Origin: a virus
Virus record (IMG/VR): IMGVR_UViG_3300036823_000091
Coordinates: 1-64,000 of that record
Reading direction: 5' to 3' (one strand)
DNA length: 64,000 nt
Part shown: positions 2,671 through 60,744 of the stretch, piece after piece
Layout: each line of letters begins with the position of its first letter
How positions within the stretch are numbered: position 1 is the stretch's first letter
Program-made: the position numbers and the translations under genes
Notes under the pieces: generated by a model
Seen by the model: the letters and a program-made list of their open reading frames with translations, nothing else
The model's database searches: none
What the model was told of the DNA's origin: nothing

Positions 2671-5600
2671 CTAATCAAATACACTTGCCAGAAGTTTTGA
2701 CCAGGACCCGGAATTCGGCCCACTTTCGCACGTGATAAGGCTTGTGTAAATTTGTGTTGGATTTCCGCTAGATGCATCTATTGTTGTCTGTTGTGTAACA
2801 TCTATCTCAGTGATGAGCATCAATGCATCATTCAAGCTTGTCTCTGGATTGAATACAGGAATTGATTGTCCTATAGCTAAACCTGTTCGTAGCGTGTTGA
2901 ATTGTATTTCATTGCCAATTACACCAAATCTCTGGAGAAGGTCATTCGCCATAAATGTGGCTGCTGAGATATTGAGGTTTTGGCTGCTCACGTCCTCCAC
3001 CTCCTCAACAATGCCTGTACCTCCTGAGATAGCAGCAAATTGAGCTTGTGAAGTCGTGTTAGGGAATTGTCCGGTATTGTCAACTACAACGCTTGTAGAG
3101 AACTGATAGACGTAATCAGGGAAAAACAATTCATCAGTATTTTGCAAGATTGCTCCACTGCTATCTTGATCAATTGCGGCACTATTAGGAGTCCAGTAAA
3201 AATCCTTGCCTGTATCTACACCTTTCACGCCTACGATTTGCAGTTGATTGTTTAGATAGATCGTTGGTTCTTCTACTAATATTCCACCTAATGTCCACGA
3301 TTGTGTTGTACCATCACCTGCCTTTTTTTCTGTATCCGTTCCTGTTGCAATGACTCCTGTGATTATTTGTCTGTTTCTATAGAGATCACCGCTATTCTTG
3401 AGATATAAGCCACTTACCATGATATCTTTATCGGTGAGTATCCAAGGTGCTGGATTTGCTTGATAGAGAGCAAAGATCATATTGAGATTGTTATCTATCT
3501 TCCAATAGGTATTACTCTTTTTAGACAAATCATCCATATTTGCTGAAATGTAGGTATAGAGATAAGAGGCAGTAGGTATTAATGACCCTAGTGCGATGTT
3601 GGGATGCAATGCAGCCATAACAAGATCAGTAAGAGCAGGTGTTGCAGTAGGATCGGTGCTCGTTAGGGTAACTCTTGTAAAGGAGTTGACTCCAGATAAG
3701 CTTTGTCCTTGTGGCTGCACTCTGAAGTTATAGAAGTGAGCTGAGCCCGTGACATTGATCAAGCCAGTTTTACCTGCAGCCGTGATTGAGCTATCTGTTG
3801 CTGAGAGCACGCTGTTACCATCAAAGTAGACCGTGATAGCATTGCCGATCATCGTAGCTCTAGCGCGGTATGGAGTCCCTCTTGTAAAGCCAATAGCTGT
3901 ACTTGACCCAAGTTGAGTCTTGACGTTGCTTACAATCTTAAACAGCTTCAGAACATTGGTAGAACCTGCACTGGATGCGCTATCGAAAATATCTAGCTCA
4001 TAGAAGTTGCTTGCATCCTGCTCTCTCCAGACAAGTCCAGCTTGATCGGCTCTATCACTGTCAATAATGAGATCAACATCCTTGGGGGAAGCAGACGGTT
4101 GACTTGTTAATGGTCCCACGCTATAGAAAGTAGAAGGGGAAGACTGACTGTTGTATTCAGTGCCGATCCACCCTGCAGTCCTCACTGAATTGGAATAATG
4201 CACCTCATCGATATCACCTTGAAAAAAGCCAGTAATCCAAGCTTTCCCGCCTATCCTGAGAGGATGAGTTACTGCCTGTGGAGCAACCGATGATTGAGAG
4301 GAGTCCTGTGCACCGTTAATGTACATAATAACAGTACTTGAGCTATACGTAACGGCTATGTGAGTCCAAGTGTTTAGTGGTATAGTTGCGGTTGAAAACT
4401 TGTCTTGAGATCCTGCAGGCCACCACCATAATCTACCCGTCGTATCAATACCGATAATATATCCGTTTGTGCCTCCATCCTCATTTCTGTCTATAATCGT
4501 TGCTCCATAAGATCCAAATGCGCTAGCAAAAGATGCTTGGTTAAATGCACTTGGATTAATCCAGAAGCTATATGTAAGAGTAGAAACTGTATTTAAGTTA
4601 GAAGCATTGGGAATATTTACATAATCACTTGAGCCATTATATGAGAGAGATTTACCTATTTGTCCACTAGTTGATAGGAGGTTGGTATTCTGTTGTGCAG
4701 TTCCGTCATTTGCATTAGATGTGCTGTCATTTACTGAAGTAGAAGCTGCATTATCATAAGAGTGCATAACGAGCTTGAAGTTACTGTCCCATACACCTGT
4801 AATAAATTCCTGAGATGTAGATATTGAAGGGTTGCCAACATACATATAGAACACGGTATCAACTGTATGAGAAACAGTAGCTACTGATACCCACATTGCA
4901 ATTTCACCAATGACAGGATCATAGTATTCAATCTCGAAAAAGAGTGCTCCTGTCTCTGTGCTATCGCTGAATATGATGTCGTATCCGTGAATATTTTGTA
5001 CTAATCCTCTATTTGAGACATGAGCAAGATTAGGATCAATGATATGTACAAGAACAGGAAAACTTGAAAGGTCTGCTCCTCCAACAACTTTTGTATGGTC
5101 GATTGTGAGCTTATACTTGTATGAGTATCCGGTGTTGTACCAAACTGGATTAGAAAGCTGCATGTCACTAGAGCCACCTGAGACATCTAGTCGTGAGCTA
5201 GCCGTGTTCCATGTCCAGGTGCCTGCCGATCCTCCAGTTTTGTTGAGATGGGTATAGTTGAGATGAGTATCAACTGCAAAGCTATCCAAGGATGCAAGAG
5301 GCTGTGAGGTGAGCCCAGCTATTGCTCCTCCATTGTTGACGTTTGTCCAGCTTGTTGAACCGTTTGGGCTTGTAGCGACTACAACCGACGTGTTGGGAGG
5401 CGTAATTGCCTCCCAATTCACGACGGAAGAGCCGCATACAAGTGCAGGAGACAAGGAGAGAGCAGGAGAAATACGCGTTCCAGTTGAGCTAAATCCGCCT
5501 AAAACATAGAGTGTCATATCTTGGATTTGAGGCAAGACAGTAGATGTATTGCAGCTAAAGAGCATTTGAAGCAGGAGATTAACACCGGAAAGAGACTGCC

Positions 5601-38273: not shown

Positions 38274-39266
38274 ATGGATATTATACCTATACCATCACAG
38301 CCTCTCTCAGTAGGACAACTAGCAAATGAATATGCTGCTTCAAATGTCTTTAACGACTACAAGCAAAAGCTAGCTGATAACACACTCAAGAGACAACAAG
38401 ATGATATCAAGCTGTTTTCTGCTTTCCTCAAGAATATAGGCATGCAGAGAGACAATTTGATGTCTGATCCTACAGAATGGCAAGGTATCACCTTTGGTCT
38501 TGTAGAAGCTTTCAAGAGATGGCAGTTAGATCAGGGATATGCTATTGCTTCTATAAACGCACATTTGTCTAGTGTGAAAGTATATGCAAGCCTAGCAACT
38601 ACGTCAGGAGCTATCTCAGCAGAAGATTATGCAATGATAAAGATGGTAAAGAGTTACAGACATAAGGAAGGAAGAAATGTAGATACTAAACGAGAGGTAG
38701 CACGTGTTGGCAGCAAGAAAGCCGATGCGGTGTCTCTCACACAGGAGCAAGCCAAACAGCTTAAGAGTCAACCAAACACGGCACAGGGACGACGTGACAC
38801 GTTTCTGATGTGTTTGCTCTTAGATCATGGCCTTCGATGTGGTGAAGTAGCAGGATTGTCCCCTAAATGCCTCAATCTCGCAGAAGGAACGCTTATCTTC
38901 TATCGGCAAAAGGTAGATAAGACGCAAATTCATAAGCTGACCAGGGATACACTCCTGGCCGCCATGCGTTATCTAGAGATCTGCAAACCAAGGGAGTATC
39001 TACTAATGGGTAGTAGGAAAGGCGGTAACCTGGAAGGTAGAATGAGTGAACGTGCTATCACTGATCGCGTGAGAGAGCTGGGTGAGAGAATAGGAATTAA
39101 GGGACTCTCAGCTCATGATTGTAGACACGATTGGGCTAAAGATGCTATCAAGAATACAGACATCAAATCTCTACAACAAGCTGGAGGATGGAGCAGTTCA
39201 GCTATGCCACTACGGTATGCCGATGATGCTAAGATTGCCAATGAAGGCGTAAATTTATCTAGATAG
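38274..39266 (+). CDS. int: Tyrosine recombinase / phage integrase (330 aa)
   Basis: Catalyses site-specific integration. The N-terminal part is a SAM-like core-binding domain (FSAFLKNIGM ... AIASINAHLSSVK). The catalytic domain has Arg188 in HGLRCGEV, HxxR at 281-284 (AHDCRHDW), Trp306 in place of the second His (GGWSS, common in the family) and Tyr315 (LRYADD). Length is typical. An HTH gene nearby may be the excisionase. attP was not identified. Confidence 0.93.
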   Translation: MDIIPIPSQPLSVGQLANEYAASNVFNDYKQKLADNTLKRQQDDIKLFSAFLKNIGMQRDNLMSDPTEWQGITFGLVEAFKRWQLDQGYAIASINAHLSSVKVYASLATTSGAISAEDYAMIKMVKSYRHKEGRNVDTKREVARVGSKKADAVSLTQEQAKQLKSQPNTAQGRRDTFLMCLLLDHGLRCGEVAGLSPKCLNLAEGTLIFYRQKVDKTQIHKLTRDTLLAAMRYLEICKPREYLLMGSRKGGNLEGRMSERAITDRVRELGERIGIKGLSAHDCRHDWAKDAIKNTDIKSLQQAGGWSSSAMPLRYADDAKIANEGVNLSR

Positions 39267-47470: not shown

Positions 47471-47555
47471 ATAATATACGAGGACGATCAATTTTGTCAA
47501 GGATTCAAAATTGACCCTAAAACCTATTGACATAGTATCAATCATCGGGTATTAT
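47471..47555. promoter_or_regulatory. Divergent early promoter/operator region (includes promoter C)
   Basis: Plus promoter: TTGACA (47527-47532), 17 bp, TATTAT (47550-47555). Minus promoter: TTGACA (47500-47495), 18 bp, TATTAT (47476-47471). Between them is a perfect inverted repeat TCAATTTTG-N9-CAAAATTGA (47488-47514). The plus promoter carries the same upstream element (GATTCAAAATTGACCC) at the same 25-bp distance as promoters A and B. Confidence 0.7.
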
Positions 47556-56854: not shown

Positions 56855-57289
56855 ATGAACAAGTACGGATTGTCACTTATAGAGATTGGAACACTCATAT
56901 TAATATCAGAAGGCAAAAGCATTGATGAGATTGTCAAGAACGGATATCCATCAATTGAGAAGTTTGATGACACCATTAGAAACATAATGGATAAGACAAA
57001 CGCGAATACTTGGGAGGAACTAAAGGCGATTGGATCACAATTGGTGCATATATCCAAAACACCTTCTACAGTGATTGAACCGATCAAGATCGCAAATGAC
57101 TATGATGATCTCTTAAAAGAGCACATAGAAGGTTTCTGCTACCTGTATGAAAAGCTAATCGAAGAGCACAAAATGCTATGCAATCAATGCCATGAAGTTG
57201 CTCCAGGTCTTCATGCGATGTGCAATGAGCAAGGGAGATTGAGAGCTAAGAAGCTTGACTGGATGGACAGATTAATAACTAGGCTTTAG
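56855..57289 (+). CDS. Degenerate LuxR-like HTH protein (144 aa)
   Basis: The ATG at 56855 (MNKYGLSLIEIGTLIL) follows AGGAGGAGG; an upstream start at 56783 would add a membrane segment but has a weaker SD. The pattern parallels the neighbouring LuxR HTH (L-S-x-x-E-I-x-x-L...I-S-E-G-K-S...I). The C-terminus contains C-N-Q-C-H and a later C. Likely a paralogous regulator. Confidence 0.6.
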   Translation: MNKYGLSLIEIGTLILISEGKSIDEIVKNGYPSIEKFDDTIRNIMDKTNANTWEELKAIGSQLVHISKTPSTVIEPIKIANDYDDLLKEHIEGFCYLYEKLIEEHKMLCNQCHEVAPGLHAMCNEQGRLRAKKLDWMDRLITRL

Positions 57290-57309
57290 ATCGGAGGAAT
57301 ATATTTAGT

Positions 57310-57786
57310 ATGACAAAACTAGCAAACGTGATTATTCCAGTTAGTGAGGCAAAATTGCAAGAACGTCAAGTCACTGTACAAGTGCTCACAATTGGCACTA
57401 AGCAGATTACACAAGCACTGTATAAACAGCTAACAGAAGTGAACATAAGAGATGAAGACGGACTCATAAACCCCTTTACAGGCAAAGTGCAAGGGACTAT
57501 ATGGGGATGGGTTAACTTACATGATAACTGCATGTTCGATAAAAAGGATCATCTCCATGTCGTTTGGGAGAGTAATGGTGAACTAAAAAAATCAGAAGTT
57601 CATTTACCCTGGACTAAAACCTCTTCCTCATATGGCAGCATCCACATGACGAGCTACTGTACTGAATTGGCCAATAAGGGTAAAATAGATGAACTTAACC
57701 AACTAAGAGCAAATTGGCTGATAAGTTGGCAGACTTGCAAAAATGCTGGACAGCTCTTCATAGCCGTGTCTGGAGTCTGGAAATGA
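57310..57786 (+). CDS. Hypothetical protein (158 aa)
   Basis: SD CGGAGGA upstream. Mixed alpha/beta protein with NPFTGKVQGTIWGWVNLHDN and VSGVWK at the end. It is convergent with the XRE repressor gene. No family recognised. Confidence 0.6.
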   Translation: MTKLANVIIPVSEAKLQERQVTVQVLTIGTKQITQALYKQLTEVNIRDEDGLINPFTGKVQGTIWGWVNLHDNCMFDKKDHLHVVWESNGELKKSEVHLPWTKTSSSYGSIHMTSYCTELANKGKIDELNQLRANWLISWQTCKNAGQLFIAVSGVWK

Positions 57787-57794
57787 AAGACAAG

Positions 57795-58055
57795 CTATCC
57801 CTCATTCCCAAGATCAACATACACAGAGGCAATGATTTCAGCTCGTTCCTGTGGTGTACACTCCAATGCTGTACACCACGCATTCAGGGTTTCCCTCTTG
57901 GGGACAACTTGACCGATCATTGCTCTAGCCAAGGCGTTGCGCCGAAAACCATGTTGAGCGCTGAAATCAACAACGCTTTTGTACCCTTTTGCCTTTATTT
58001 TCGGATTCATCAAACCTCGAAATCGGACAGGGTTGAACTTTTTTTCTTTGACCAT
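57795..58055 (-). CDS. XRE-like repressor facing the TnpB gene (86 aa)
   Basis: SD GGGAG 7 nt before the ATG. An HTH-like core (RFRGLMNPKIKAKGYKSVVD, then FRRNALARAMIGQ and ETLNAWCTALECTPQE) fits XRE/phage-repressor proteins. Its promoter overlaps the TnpB promoter, with 15-bp operators on each -35, the expected arrangement for an autoregulated switch. It is short, without a peptidase domain, so it is not a self-cleaving CI. Confidence 0.75.
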   Translation of the reverse strand: MVKEKKFNPVRFRGLMNPKIKAKGYKSVVDFSAQHGFRRNALARAMIGQVVPKRETLNAWCTALECTPQERAEIIASVYVDLGNEG

Positions 58056-58079
58056 GAAAATACTCCCATAACAAAATTA

Positions 58080-58134
58080 TACCTTGACAGGGTACAAAAT
58101 ATACGATATAATAAATCTGTACCTCAAGAAGGTA
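58080..58134. promoter_or_regulatory. Overlapping divergent promoters with two operators
   Basis: Plus promoter: consensus TTGACA (58084-58089), 17 bp, TATAAT (58107-58112), toward TnpB. Minus promoter: TTGAGG (58127-58122), 18 bp, TATATT (58103-58098), toward the XRE gene. Operator 1, TACCTTGACAGGGTA (58080-58094), covers the plus -35. Operator 2, TACCTCAAGAAGGTA (58120-58134), covers the minus -35. Both fit TACC-N7-GGTA. Confidence 0.75.
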
Positions 58135-58196
58135 TATTATTCACATATAATACTTGGCGAAGACATAGATGTCAAGAAGCAAGGAAAAACCACAAT

Positions 58197-59393
58197 ATGG
58201 CTAAGGCAGAGAAACTCAACCTTCTCAATAAGACATACAAGTTCCGCATTTATCCGAATAAAGCAACTACTGAGAAGCTTCAGTGGACACTTGACAGGTG
58301 CAGAGAACTGTATAACGCGGCTTTGCAAGAGCGTAAAGAAGCTTGGAAGTATGCCAAGAAGTCCATTAGCTGGGTTGAGCAGTGTCGCAGCTTAACCGAG
58401 ATCAAGGCAGACGTGAGACCTGAATATAAAGAGATTGCTAGCCATGTCTTGCAAGATGTGATACTGCGAGTCGAGAAAGCCTATAAAGCTTTCTTTAGAC
58501 GGATCAAGAATGGTGAGACACCCGGCTACCCAAGATTTCAAGGTCGGAATCACTATGACAGCTTTACTTATCCAGACCTATCGAACTGGAAACTAGAGAT
58601 TGGAGAGAAAAAGAAAGGCAAGTTAATCCTCTCCAAAGTCGGCCCTATCAATGTCAAGATGCATAGACCAATTGAGGGGAAGATTAAAACAATGACGCTC
58701 AAACGAGAAGGAGATGAATGGTATGTGGTGTTCTCTTGTGAAGTGGAAACATGTAAGAAACTACCATACACTGATTTCGCAATAGGGCTAGACTTGGGGC
58801 TTTTGCACTTTGCAACCGACTCGTTTGGACAAACGATAGAGAATCCGAGGCACTACCGACGTGCCGAGCAGAAACTTAAGAATGCACAACAAGCTCTCTC
58901 TCGTAAGAAACGCAGATCGAACCGTCGTAAAAAGGCTGTTCAGAAAGTGACCAGGGCTCATAGAAAGATACGTAACCAAAGAAAAGATTTTCTGCACAAA
59001 CAATCTCGAATACTAGTAGACACCTTTGAAACAATCGTTTTTGAAGATATTCAACCTGCCAATCTTAGCAAGAGGCCAAGACCTAAGCAGGACGAGAACG
59101 GGAAATATCTTCCTAATGGAGCTAGCAAGAAGGCAGGTTTGAATAAGAGTATATTAGATGCTGGCTGGGGAATGTTCATAGCAATGTGCGAGTACAAGGC
59201 TGCGAGTGCTGGTACTCAAGTGCTACGAGTCGATCCCAGGAATACCAGCCAAGTATGCAGTGGCTGTGGCGTCAAAGGACCGCACAAGGACTTGAGTGTA
59301 CGTACACATACTTGTTCAAGTTGCGGGCTAGTTCTTGACCGTGATCACAATGCTGCTCTCAACATACTAAAACGCGGCTTAGACGCTGCATAA
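58197..59393 (+). CDS. tnpB: TnpB RNA-guided nuclease, IS200/IS605 type (398 aa)
   Basis: Start at MAKAEKLNLLN; longer frames read into the repressor region and are unsupported. The RuvC residues look intact: Asp199 (IGLDLG), Glu283 (VFEDIQ) and Asp383 (DRDHNAALN). A zinc ribbon uses Cys354, Cys357, Cys373 and Cys376. N-terminal wedge-like (KFRIYPNKATTEKLQWTLDR) and helical REC-like regions are present. No TnpA is nearby, so it is a stand-alone TnpB. Expression from a repressible promoter next to a phage-type repressor suggests domestication. Confidence 0.9.
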   Translation: MAKAEKLNLLNKTYKFRIYPNKATTEKLQWTLDRCRELYNAALQERKEAWKYAKKSISWVEQCRSLTEIKADVRPEYKEIASHVLQDVILRVEKAYKAFFRRIKNGETPGYPRFQGRNHYDSFTYPDLSNWKLEIGEKKKGKLILSKVGPINVKMHRPIEGKIKTMTLKREGDEWYVVFSCEVETCKKLPYTDFAIGLDLGLLHFATDSFGQTIENPRHYRRAEQKLKNAQQALSRKKRRSNRRKKAVQKVTRAHRKIRNQRKDFLHKQSRILVDTFETIVFEDIQPANLSKRPRPKQDENGKYLPNGASKKAGLNKSILDAGWGMFIAMCEYKAASAGTQVLRVDPRNTSQVCSGCGVKGPHKDLSVRTHTCSSCGLVLDRDHNAALNILKRGLDAA

Positions 59394-59462
59394 GCAAGAG
59401 ACTACCCCAGGAAATGGGGTTCAGAGGACGCGCCTCTGAGAAGCTACGAGACTAAGTCTCAT
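59394..59462 (+). ncRNA. Candidate omega-RNA scaffold / element right end
   Basis: Directly after tnpB are three short hairpins: TACCCC/GGGGT, CAGAGG/CCTCTG and GAGACT/AGTCTC. This is the usual place of the TnpB guide RNA scaffold and right end in IS200/IS605 elements. The guide itself would start at the element end, which I cannot locate precisely. Confidence 0.45.
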
Positions 59463-59518
59463 CAGTATTTCACTGGATGGATAAACTTATCACCAAGTTA
59501 TAGAAAGGATTTTTAATC

Positions 59519-59737
59519 ATGATTGAAAAAGCAAAAGTGCTTGACATGATCGACAAAAAGATCATGGAGCATCAGAAAAACATCACGGAGTCTCTCAGAG
59601 AAGTAAATGCAGCTATAAGCAACCTTGACACTCAAGATGCTCAAAGAAAGTCAGTTGATGTCGCTAAGCATCAAGCAAAAGTTGATGCTTTAAACGAGAT
59701 TAGAAAACAAATTAGCTTATGGTGCAAGCCACAATAG
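59519..59737 (+). CDS. Small coiled-coil protein (72 aa)
   Basis: SD AAAGGA upstream; the start region (TTAATCATGATTGA) is a variant of the TTGATCATGA motif. Nearly all helix (VLDMIDKKIMEHQKNITESL). Function unknown. Confidence 0.6.
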   Translation: MIEKAKVLDMIDKKIMEHQKNITESLREVNAAISNLDTQDAQRKSVDVAKHQAKVDALNEIRKQISLWCKPQ

Positions 59738-59749
59738 AAGGAGAATATC

Positions 59750-60262
59750 ATGAACGAGAATGCCTTAGCACAAAAATGCTTCAATGCACTTAATAAAGTA
59801 ACTAAATGGAGGACAATTTTTTGCGGGTGGCAGCTAGGGACCCGACCATTAGGAGATCCCGAATCTGATGCCGTAAGAGATCATAGGGAAGTCACGATCC
59901 TAGAGCGTCTGGAGATTTCAGCACTGAAGCAAATCCTCATAGGGGTTGAGTTCTCACAAGAGGATTTCAATCAGGCATTAACAATCTGGAGTCAAGGTAC
60001 GGACACATCAATAGACAATGCTACACAGGAGCATAGAGCTGTAACTATTTCTTTGCGAGTTGAGATCTCGGCTCTTCTACAAGTGCTTTTCCAGAAAGGC
60101 ATTTTAACCTTAGAAGACTATCAGAAAGCCCTCATCCAAGAGTGTGATTATCTGGAGATGGACTATCAGAAGCGTTTTCCAGGCATGGAATCAACGGATA
60201 CAGGCATGCACTTTTACGATGTCAACAAAGCAGCTAAAACGATGAAAAACTGGAAGCCATAG
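59750..60262 (+). CDS. Hypothetical protein with internal duplication (170 aa)
   Basis: Two related halves: D-A-V-R-D-H-R-E-V-T-I-L-E-R-L-E-I-S-A-L-K and T-Q-E-H-R-A-V-T-I-S-L-R-V-E-I-S-A-L-L, each followed by a helix (F-N-Q-A-L, Y-Q-K-A-L). The N-terminal W-Q-L-G-T-R-P-L-G-D-P-E-S-D-A-V-R-D-H pattern recurs in phage hypotheticals. Upstream of the interrupted gene. Function unknown. Confidence 0.65.
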   Translation: MNENALAQKCFNALNKVTKWRTIFCGWQLGTRPLGDPESDAVRDHREVTILERLEISALKQILIGVEFSQEDFNQALTIWSQGTDTSIDNATQEHRAVTISLRVEISALLQVLFQKGILTLEDYQKALIQECDYLEMDYQKRFPGMESTDTGMHFYDVNKAAKTMKNWKP

Positions 60263-60293: not shown

Positions 60294-60744
60294 TGACATT
60301 TATCAGATAAAATTTCGCCTCTATCAGATAACTTTTCCGACCCATTGGAGCTGTAAAGCGTGCGAAAACGGGTGTGCTTCTATCACATAACTTTTCTGCC
60401 TAATGTGTCCACCGTTTTCAAAGAGTATTTGGTACGAGTTTTCTCTGTTTTTGCCCCACAAGGAAAAGTTATCCGATAAAAACGAAAAGTTATGCGATTG
60501 AAACAACGCCGCTCTAGAAGCGCTTCCAGACGACTGGACGAAAAGTTATGTGATTAAAAACGGTGCGTTTGCCTTTTCGTTAGACGGCAACTGAGCCATG
60601 CAAACGTTTCGGCGAGGTCTGGAAAAGTTATGCGATTGAGCCGGTCATCTACTTCTAGCCTTCGATCAGCCTCACATGCCAATGTGGAGCTAGGCGACGA
60701 AAAGTTATGTGATTGAAAAGCGAAAAGTTATTCGAAAAATGTCA
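60294..60744. mobile_element. 451-bp non-autonomous Tn7/Tn5053-like element (MITE)
   Basis: Starts TGACATTTATCAG and ends ...CGAAAAATGTCA, so TGACATTT is an inverted terminus. Target duplication ATACA flanks it (60289-60293, 60745-60749). Nine subterminal ~19-bp copies of SGAAAAGTTATNYGAT are present: three inverted at the left, six direct at the right. This matches the end architecture of Mu/Tn7/Tn5053-type (TnsB/TniA) elements. It has no gene. A transposase would have to act in trans. Confidence 0.88.
60299..60739. repeat. Nine subterminal 19-bp transposase-binding-like repeats
   Basis: Inverted copies begin at 60299, 60320 and 60379. Direct copies begin at 60462, 60483, 60539, 60621, 60698 and 60721. 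Consensus SGAAAAGTTATNYGATWRA. The terminal pairs are spaced ~21 and 23 bp and give long imperfect inverted repeats at the ends. Confidence 0.88.

What the first reader, a model, noticed from the sequence alone, without database searches (positions are those of the whole stretch)
57795..59462. XRE repressor and TnpB nuclease form a compact divergent switch
Seen: a consensus plus promoter (TTGACA-17-TATAAT) to tnpB overlaps a minus promoter to an XRE gene. Each -35 lies in a TACC-N7-GGTA operator (58080-58094, 58120-58134). TnpB has intact RuvC residues and zinc ribbon, with hairpins downstream as expected for an omega-RNA; no tnpA. Known: TnpB is an RNA-guided nuclease, and phages have domesticated TnpB-like proteins as regulators. 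Inference: induction or loss of the repressor turns on an RNA-guided nuclease, perhaps for competition or superinfection control.
Basis: partly seen in the sequence, partly recalled or inferred. Interest (0 to 1): 0.85.

Follow-up and report, generated by a model that had tools for sequence, protein, structure and literature searches.

The report
Transposon nuclease inserted behind phage switch
A common mobile element that carries an RNA-guided DNA cutter (TnpB) most likely jumped into the leader of a phage operon just behind a repressor-controlled promoter, so the repressor probably switches the cutter too, but by accident of position and not as a conserved partnership.

Summary
There is a perfect 12/12 sigma-70 promoter (58084-58112), two TACC-N7-GGTA dyads, a divergent XRE-like gene, and a catalytically intact TnpB without tnpA.

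The tnpB gene looks like an ordinary tnpB-only IS200/IS605 element (about 58145-59473). Its right end has the family signature GAAGC-hairpin-TCAC (13 of 20 elements, 0.17 expected). Its left end begins after TTCAC and has the stem-loop form seen in three relatives. The promoter, both operators and the XRE gene lie outside it. Removing the element puts the promoter start about 70 nt before gene 59519-59737. So the switch is probably a phage device for that operon, and TnpB inserted into its leader. No other strong promoter was seen ahead of tnpB, so XRE probably does gate TnpB.

No XRE relative was found. Sister phages carry TnpBs elsewhere, with a small ribbon-helix-helix gene instead. The predicted guide matches only its own flank, so the expected target is the uninserted allele. 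An empty site was not found, so the left boundary remains inferred.

The parts
57795..58055 (-). XRE/lambda-repressor-like protein gene, 86 aa; GGGAG ribosome site at 58063-58067
   Evidence: ORF; weak HTH_31/HTH_26; model and fold search
58080..58094 (.). putative operator 1, TACCTTGACAGGGTA, over the -35 of the plus promoter
58084..58112 (+). plus promoter P+, TTGACA-17-TATAAT, 12/12
   Evidence: chance density
58120..58134 (.). putative operator 2, TACCTCAAGAAGGTA, at the expected start of P+ and over the -35 of the weak minus promoter
58140..58144 (+). TTCAC, inferred left cleavage site / TAM; identical to the last five bases of the right end
58145..58183 (+). inferred left end of the tnpB element with two-stem hairpin (CTTG/CAAG, GACA/TGTC)
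   Evidence: same layout in L014, L015, L043; weak fold
58197..59393 (+). tnpB, 398 aa, RuvC D199/E283/D383 and zinc ribbon intact
59394..59473 (+). 3' hairpins and right end, omega-RNA scaffold end; signature GAAGC-hairpin-TTTCAC at 59440-59473
59474..59493 (+). predicted guide TGGATGGATAAACTTATCAC; no second match in the window
59519..59737 (+). 72-aa gene, inferred original first gene behind P+
   Evidence: P+ start would be about 70 nt upstream without the element
59750..60262 (+). 170-aa gene, next gene of that operon, conserved in distant phages

Best explanation
A tnpB-only IS200/IS605 element (about 58145-59473) sits in the 5' leader of a phage operon. Before insertion, a small XRE repressor gene and a strong promoter P+ with two operators formed a divergent switch, with P+ starting about 70 nt ahead of the 72-aa and 170-aa genes. 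The element inserted right behind TTCAC, 10 nt past operator 2. TnpB has no comparable promoter of its own, so it is now probably transcribed from P+ and gated by XRE, together with the operon. The 3' part of the transcript would give an omega-RNA whose guide is the phage leader just downstream, so the nuclease would cut the uninserted allele behind a TTCAC-like TAM: normal TnpB retention/homing behaviour. The element's left end may also supply an outward promoter that raises XRE expression. Shown: the genes, promoter and dyad sequences, the right-end signature, the catalytic residues. Inferred: the exact left end, XRE binding, transcription, guide use.
For: Right-end signature GAAGC-hairpin-TCAC in 13 of 20 related elements against 0.17 expected, window included. 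Two copies of one related element lose similarity exactly after TTCAC on the right and begin behind TTAAC on the left. TTCAC occurs once between XRE and tnpB, 8 nt before a two-stem hairpin laid out as in L014, L015 and L043; that descriptor hits only 3 plus-strand places in 64 kb. Without the element the leader from P+ to the 59519 gene is about 70 nt. No plus promoter of 9/12 or better between the left end and tnpB. Sister phages carry their TnpB elsewhere and without this XRE. Guide matches only its own flank.
Against: No empty site found; the left-end hairpin is weak and shorter than in relatives; the descriptor was written with this region in view and misses other true elements (7 of 10 relatives tested). 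Related elements do carry a small regulator gene inside, so XRE inside the element cannot be excluded.
Confidence: 0.74

Rival explanations
1. XRE and tnpB travel together as one mobile unit (about 57787-59473), a transposon with its own repressor, in which XRE represses itself and tnpB, like the ribbon-helix-helix genes in related elements.
For: XRE stands alone on the minus strand between plus-strand genes, 8 nt after the stop of the 158-aa gene. Related elements carry a small DNA-binding protein gene between left end and tnpB, with a strong promoter.
Against: No left-end-like structure upstream of XRE (57000-58080), while one fits between the operators and tnpB. The regulators in relatives are of another fold and co-directional. 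No XRE-tnpB pair found elsewhere.
Confidence: 0.14
2. A domesticated device: the phage keeps TnpB under XRE control as a weapon released on induction against competitors.
For: Intact catalytic residues; operator-flanked promoter as the only strong promoter of tnpB; integrase present, so an induction step is plausible.
Against: Both element ends look intact, nothing suggests loss of mobility apart from the missing tnpA, which is common. The XRE-tnpB arrangement was seen in no other phage. The guide matches its own flank, not a gene of another phage in the data at hand.
Confidence: 0.07
3. The dyads are not operators of the XRE; promoter and dyads are chance or belong to a host regulator, and tnpB is expressed without XRE control.
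Against: Same dyad, same spacing, 40 bp apart, one over the -35 and one at the start of the window's best promoter, next to an HTH gene.
Confidence: 0.15

Closest known systems
IS200/IS605-family elements with TnpB (ISDra2 TnpB; tnpB-only IS1341-type elements)
   Same: TnpB fold and catalytic residues, zinc ribbon, 3' hairpins ending in TCAC, left-end stem-loop behind a TTNAY pentamer, guide from the flank
   Different: No tnpA; own promoter apparently absent, so expression depends on a phage promoter; left-end hairpin short
Phage repressor switches of the lambda CI/Cro, P22 C2 or C-protein type
   Same: Small HTH protein gene divergent from a strong promoter with paired operators
   Different: Only one regulator seen, no sequence relative found, binding untested; minus promoter uncertain
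TldR (phage-encoded, nuclease-dead TnpB-like RNA-guided repressors, PMC13418256)
   Same: TnpB homologue in a temperate phage
   Different: Here the RuvC residues are intact and the guide matches the flank, so it is not of this type (PMC13418256 read only as abstract)

Membership tests
IS200/IS605 tnpB-only element | TnpB with RuvC triad and zinc ribbon | tested here: met
IS200/IS605 tnpB-only element | Right end with subterminal hairpin and family-specific terminus | tested here: met
   GAAGC-hairpin-TTTCAC, 13 of 20 elements against 0.17 expected
IS200/IS605 tnpB-only element | Left end with subterminal hairpin behind a TAM-like pentamer | tested here: inconclusive
   layout matches L014, L015, L043, but the fold is weak and no empty site is known
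IS200/IS605 tnpB-only element | No TnpA of its own | tested here: met
   no Y1_Tnp in the record
IS200/IS605 tnpB-only element | Omega-RNA made and guides cleavage | not testable with these tools
   no Rfam family hit; hairpins fold at z = -2.3
XRE/Cro-CI-type phage repressor | Lambda-repressor-like HTH fold | tested here: inconclusive
   sub-threshold Pfam hits; model pLDDT 69, top fold matches are mostly HTH repressors but E >= 0.2
XRE/Cro-CI-type phage repressor | Binds paired operators over divergent promoters | not testable with these tools
   dyads present; binding not tested
TldR | Lost RuvC catalytic residues | tested here: not met
   D199, E283, D383 intact

The most novel reading that the evidence does not exclude
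Some phage-borne TnpB elements are tightly switched by a small DNA-binding protein (XRE here, ribbon-helix-helix in sister phages), so that an RNA-guided nuclease is released only when the phage is active and cuts related phages that lack the insertion.
Probability: 0.13. Interest if true: 0.7.

Novelty: new member of a known kind. Interest (0 to 1): 0.33.

Why it matters
If right, it is a clear natural example of a selfish RNA-guided nuclease brought under a phage regulatory circuit simply by landing in a leader; its guide would let the inserted allele home into uninserted relatives when the phage is active. It also warns that a tnpB gene beside a repressor is not by itself evidence of a domesticated device. 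The recurring ribbon-helix-helix/TnpB pairs in related phages deserve their own survey.

Tried and rejected
Rfam at gathering and E-value thresholds gave no omega-RNA family. XRE, the upstream 158-aa gene and the downstream 72-aa gene have no relatives in viral contigs by this pattern-based search, which finds close relatives only; the 170-aa gene has 11, without conserved neighbours. A pattern scan for operator 1 plus promoter in viral contigs gave one hit, L069, in an unrelated phage without a second operator; taken as chance. The guide has no second match in the window. Right-end DNA had no match in plasmids. The inverted repeat 57712/59484 was not pursued: 81% over 16 nt, and IS200/IS605 elements lack terminal inverted repeats. 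Literature searches for TnpB with CopG or ribbon-helix-helix proteins found nothing on a regulated TnpB element judging by titles and abstracts.

Full report
Setting. The window is 64,000 of the 64,488 bases of an IMG/VR virus record. Judged from its translations it is a tailed phage; it has a tyrosine integrase at 38274-39266 (Phage_integrase E=7e-23), so it is probably temperate. The host is not known from these data.

The observation. The plus promoter at 58084-58112 matches TTGACA-17-TATAAT exactly and is the only 12/12 match in the window. TACC-N7-GGTA sits at 58080-58094, over its -35, and at 58120-58134, at its expected start. Three such dyads occur in the window against 0.25 expected; the third is in a tail gene. 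The two sites agree at 11 of 15 positions. A repeated dyad of any kind arises in 6% of random copies of the region, this one in none of 4000. The 86-aa minus-strand protein has weak HTH_31/HTH_26 hits below the cut-offs and a five-helix model whose nearest structures are mostly lambda-repressor-like. It starts at 58055 behind GGGAG.

TnpB. The 398-aa protein matches NF040570 guided_TnpB at 3e-95 and the ISDra2 TnpB structures at about 1e-63. D199, E283 and D383 align with D191, E278 and D361, and the zinc ribbon is complete. No Y1 transposase is in the record, which holds one tnpB. The Cas12f/Cas12u hits in PADLOC reflect shared ancestry.

Ends of the element. In relatives the right end reads GAAGC, hairpin, TCAC. 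A search for this form around the end of tnpB finds it in 13 of 20 elements, window included, against 0.17 expected from randomised sequence. In the window it is GAAGCTACGAGACTAAGTCTCATCAGTATTTCAC, ending at 59473. Two copies of one related element, L014 and L015, stay similar up to exactly this TTCAC and share a TTAAC at the left. Upstream of the window's tnpB, TTCAC occurs once, at 58140-58144. It is followed by an outer stem CTTG/CAAG, a GCGAA loop and an inner stem GACA/TGTC, the same layout as in L014, L015 and L043; the layout occurs at three plus-strand places in the window. The hairpin is weak, the descriptor was written with the region in view, and it misses several relatives, so this boundary is likely, not proven.

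What follows. With ends at 58145 and 59473, XRE, P+ and both operators are outside the element. Removing it leaves the start of P+ about 70 nt ahead of the gene at 59519, a normal leader. The simplest history is a repressor-controlled promoter for the 59519-60262 operon into whose leader the element inserted. No plus promoter of 9/12 or better lies between the left end and tnpB, so tnpB probably depends on P+ and is gated by XRE. The strong minus promoter lies inside the left end and would read out into XRE, so the insertion may even raise repressor levels (inference). The guide, from 59474, matches only its own flank; its natural target would be the uninserted allele.

Relatives. The terminase finds phages 63-74% alike. 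Of these, G013 has a TnpB 64% identical and G012 one about 29% identical, both at unrelated positions. Neither shows an XRE relative. XRE itself has no relative found in the viral or phage collections. Directly ahead of tnpB, G013, G012 and L046 instead have a small ribbon-helix-helix gene; the Arc model passes its cut-off in L046 and G012, and the G013 protein has only a weak hit. Their best promoters score 11, 10 and 12 of 12, and in G013 a 10-bp dyad surrounds the -10. In G012 (L043) a left end lies ahead of the regulator gene, so that gene rides inside the element. This raises the chance of regulated TnpB units in general, but not of an XRE-TnpB pair.

Verdict. The sequence features are real. 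The device reading is partly right in consequence (the nuclease is likely under repressor control) but probably wrong in kind: an ordinary insertion behind a phage switch.

Noticed in passing
L038:2515-2688 (G013), L046:2835-3032, L043:2798-2950 (G012): Small ribbon-helix-helix (Arc-like) genes directly ahead of tnpB in three phage-borne TnpB elements, with 10-12/12 promoters; in L047/G013 a 10-bp dyad TCATAGTAGT/ACTACTATGA surrounds the -10. In L043 the gene lies between the left end and tnpB, so the element seems to carry its own regulator.
   Followed up: partly
window 60317-60739: Array of at least eight AAAAGTTATNNGAT repeats in both orientations in a non-coding stretch (11 matches in the window with one mismatch against 0.66 expected); looks like iterons of a replication origin or a protein-binding array.
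   Followed up: partly
window 47500-47555: Two strong promoters (11/12) back to back, minus 47500 and plus 47527, between divergent genes; may be the phage's main divergent control region.
   Followed up: no
window 59750-60262: 170-aa protein of an undescribed family (motif WR-F-GWQLGTR-GDPESDAVRDHRE) present in unrelated phages at 35-43% identity; the window copy is longer and seems to hold an internal duplication of the RDHRE...EISAL stretch.
   Followed up: partly
L046:2797-2807 and 4238-4248: An 11-nt repeat AAAGTCGATTA stands on both sides of the ribbon-helix-helix/tnpB unit, the second copy directly after the right end; unexpected for IS200/IS605 elements, which make no target duplication.
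   Followed up: no
window 57851-57880: Perfect 10-bp inverted repeat GTGGTGTACA-N9-TGTACACCAC inside the 3' part of the XRE coding sequence.
   Followed up: no
L052:2407-4143: A tnpB-like reading frame continuous with an ISL3-like transposase start, apparently a fusion or an insertion scar.
   Followed up: no
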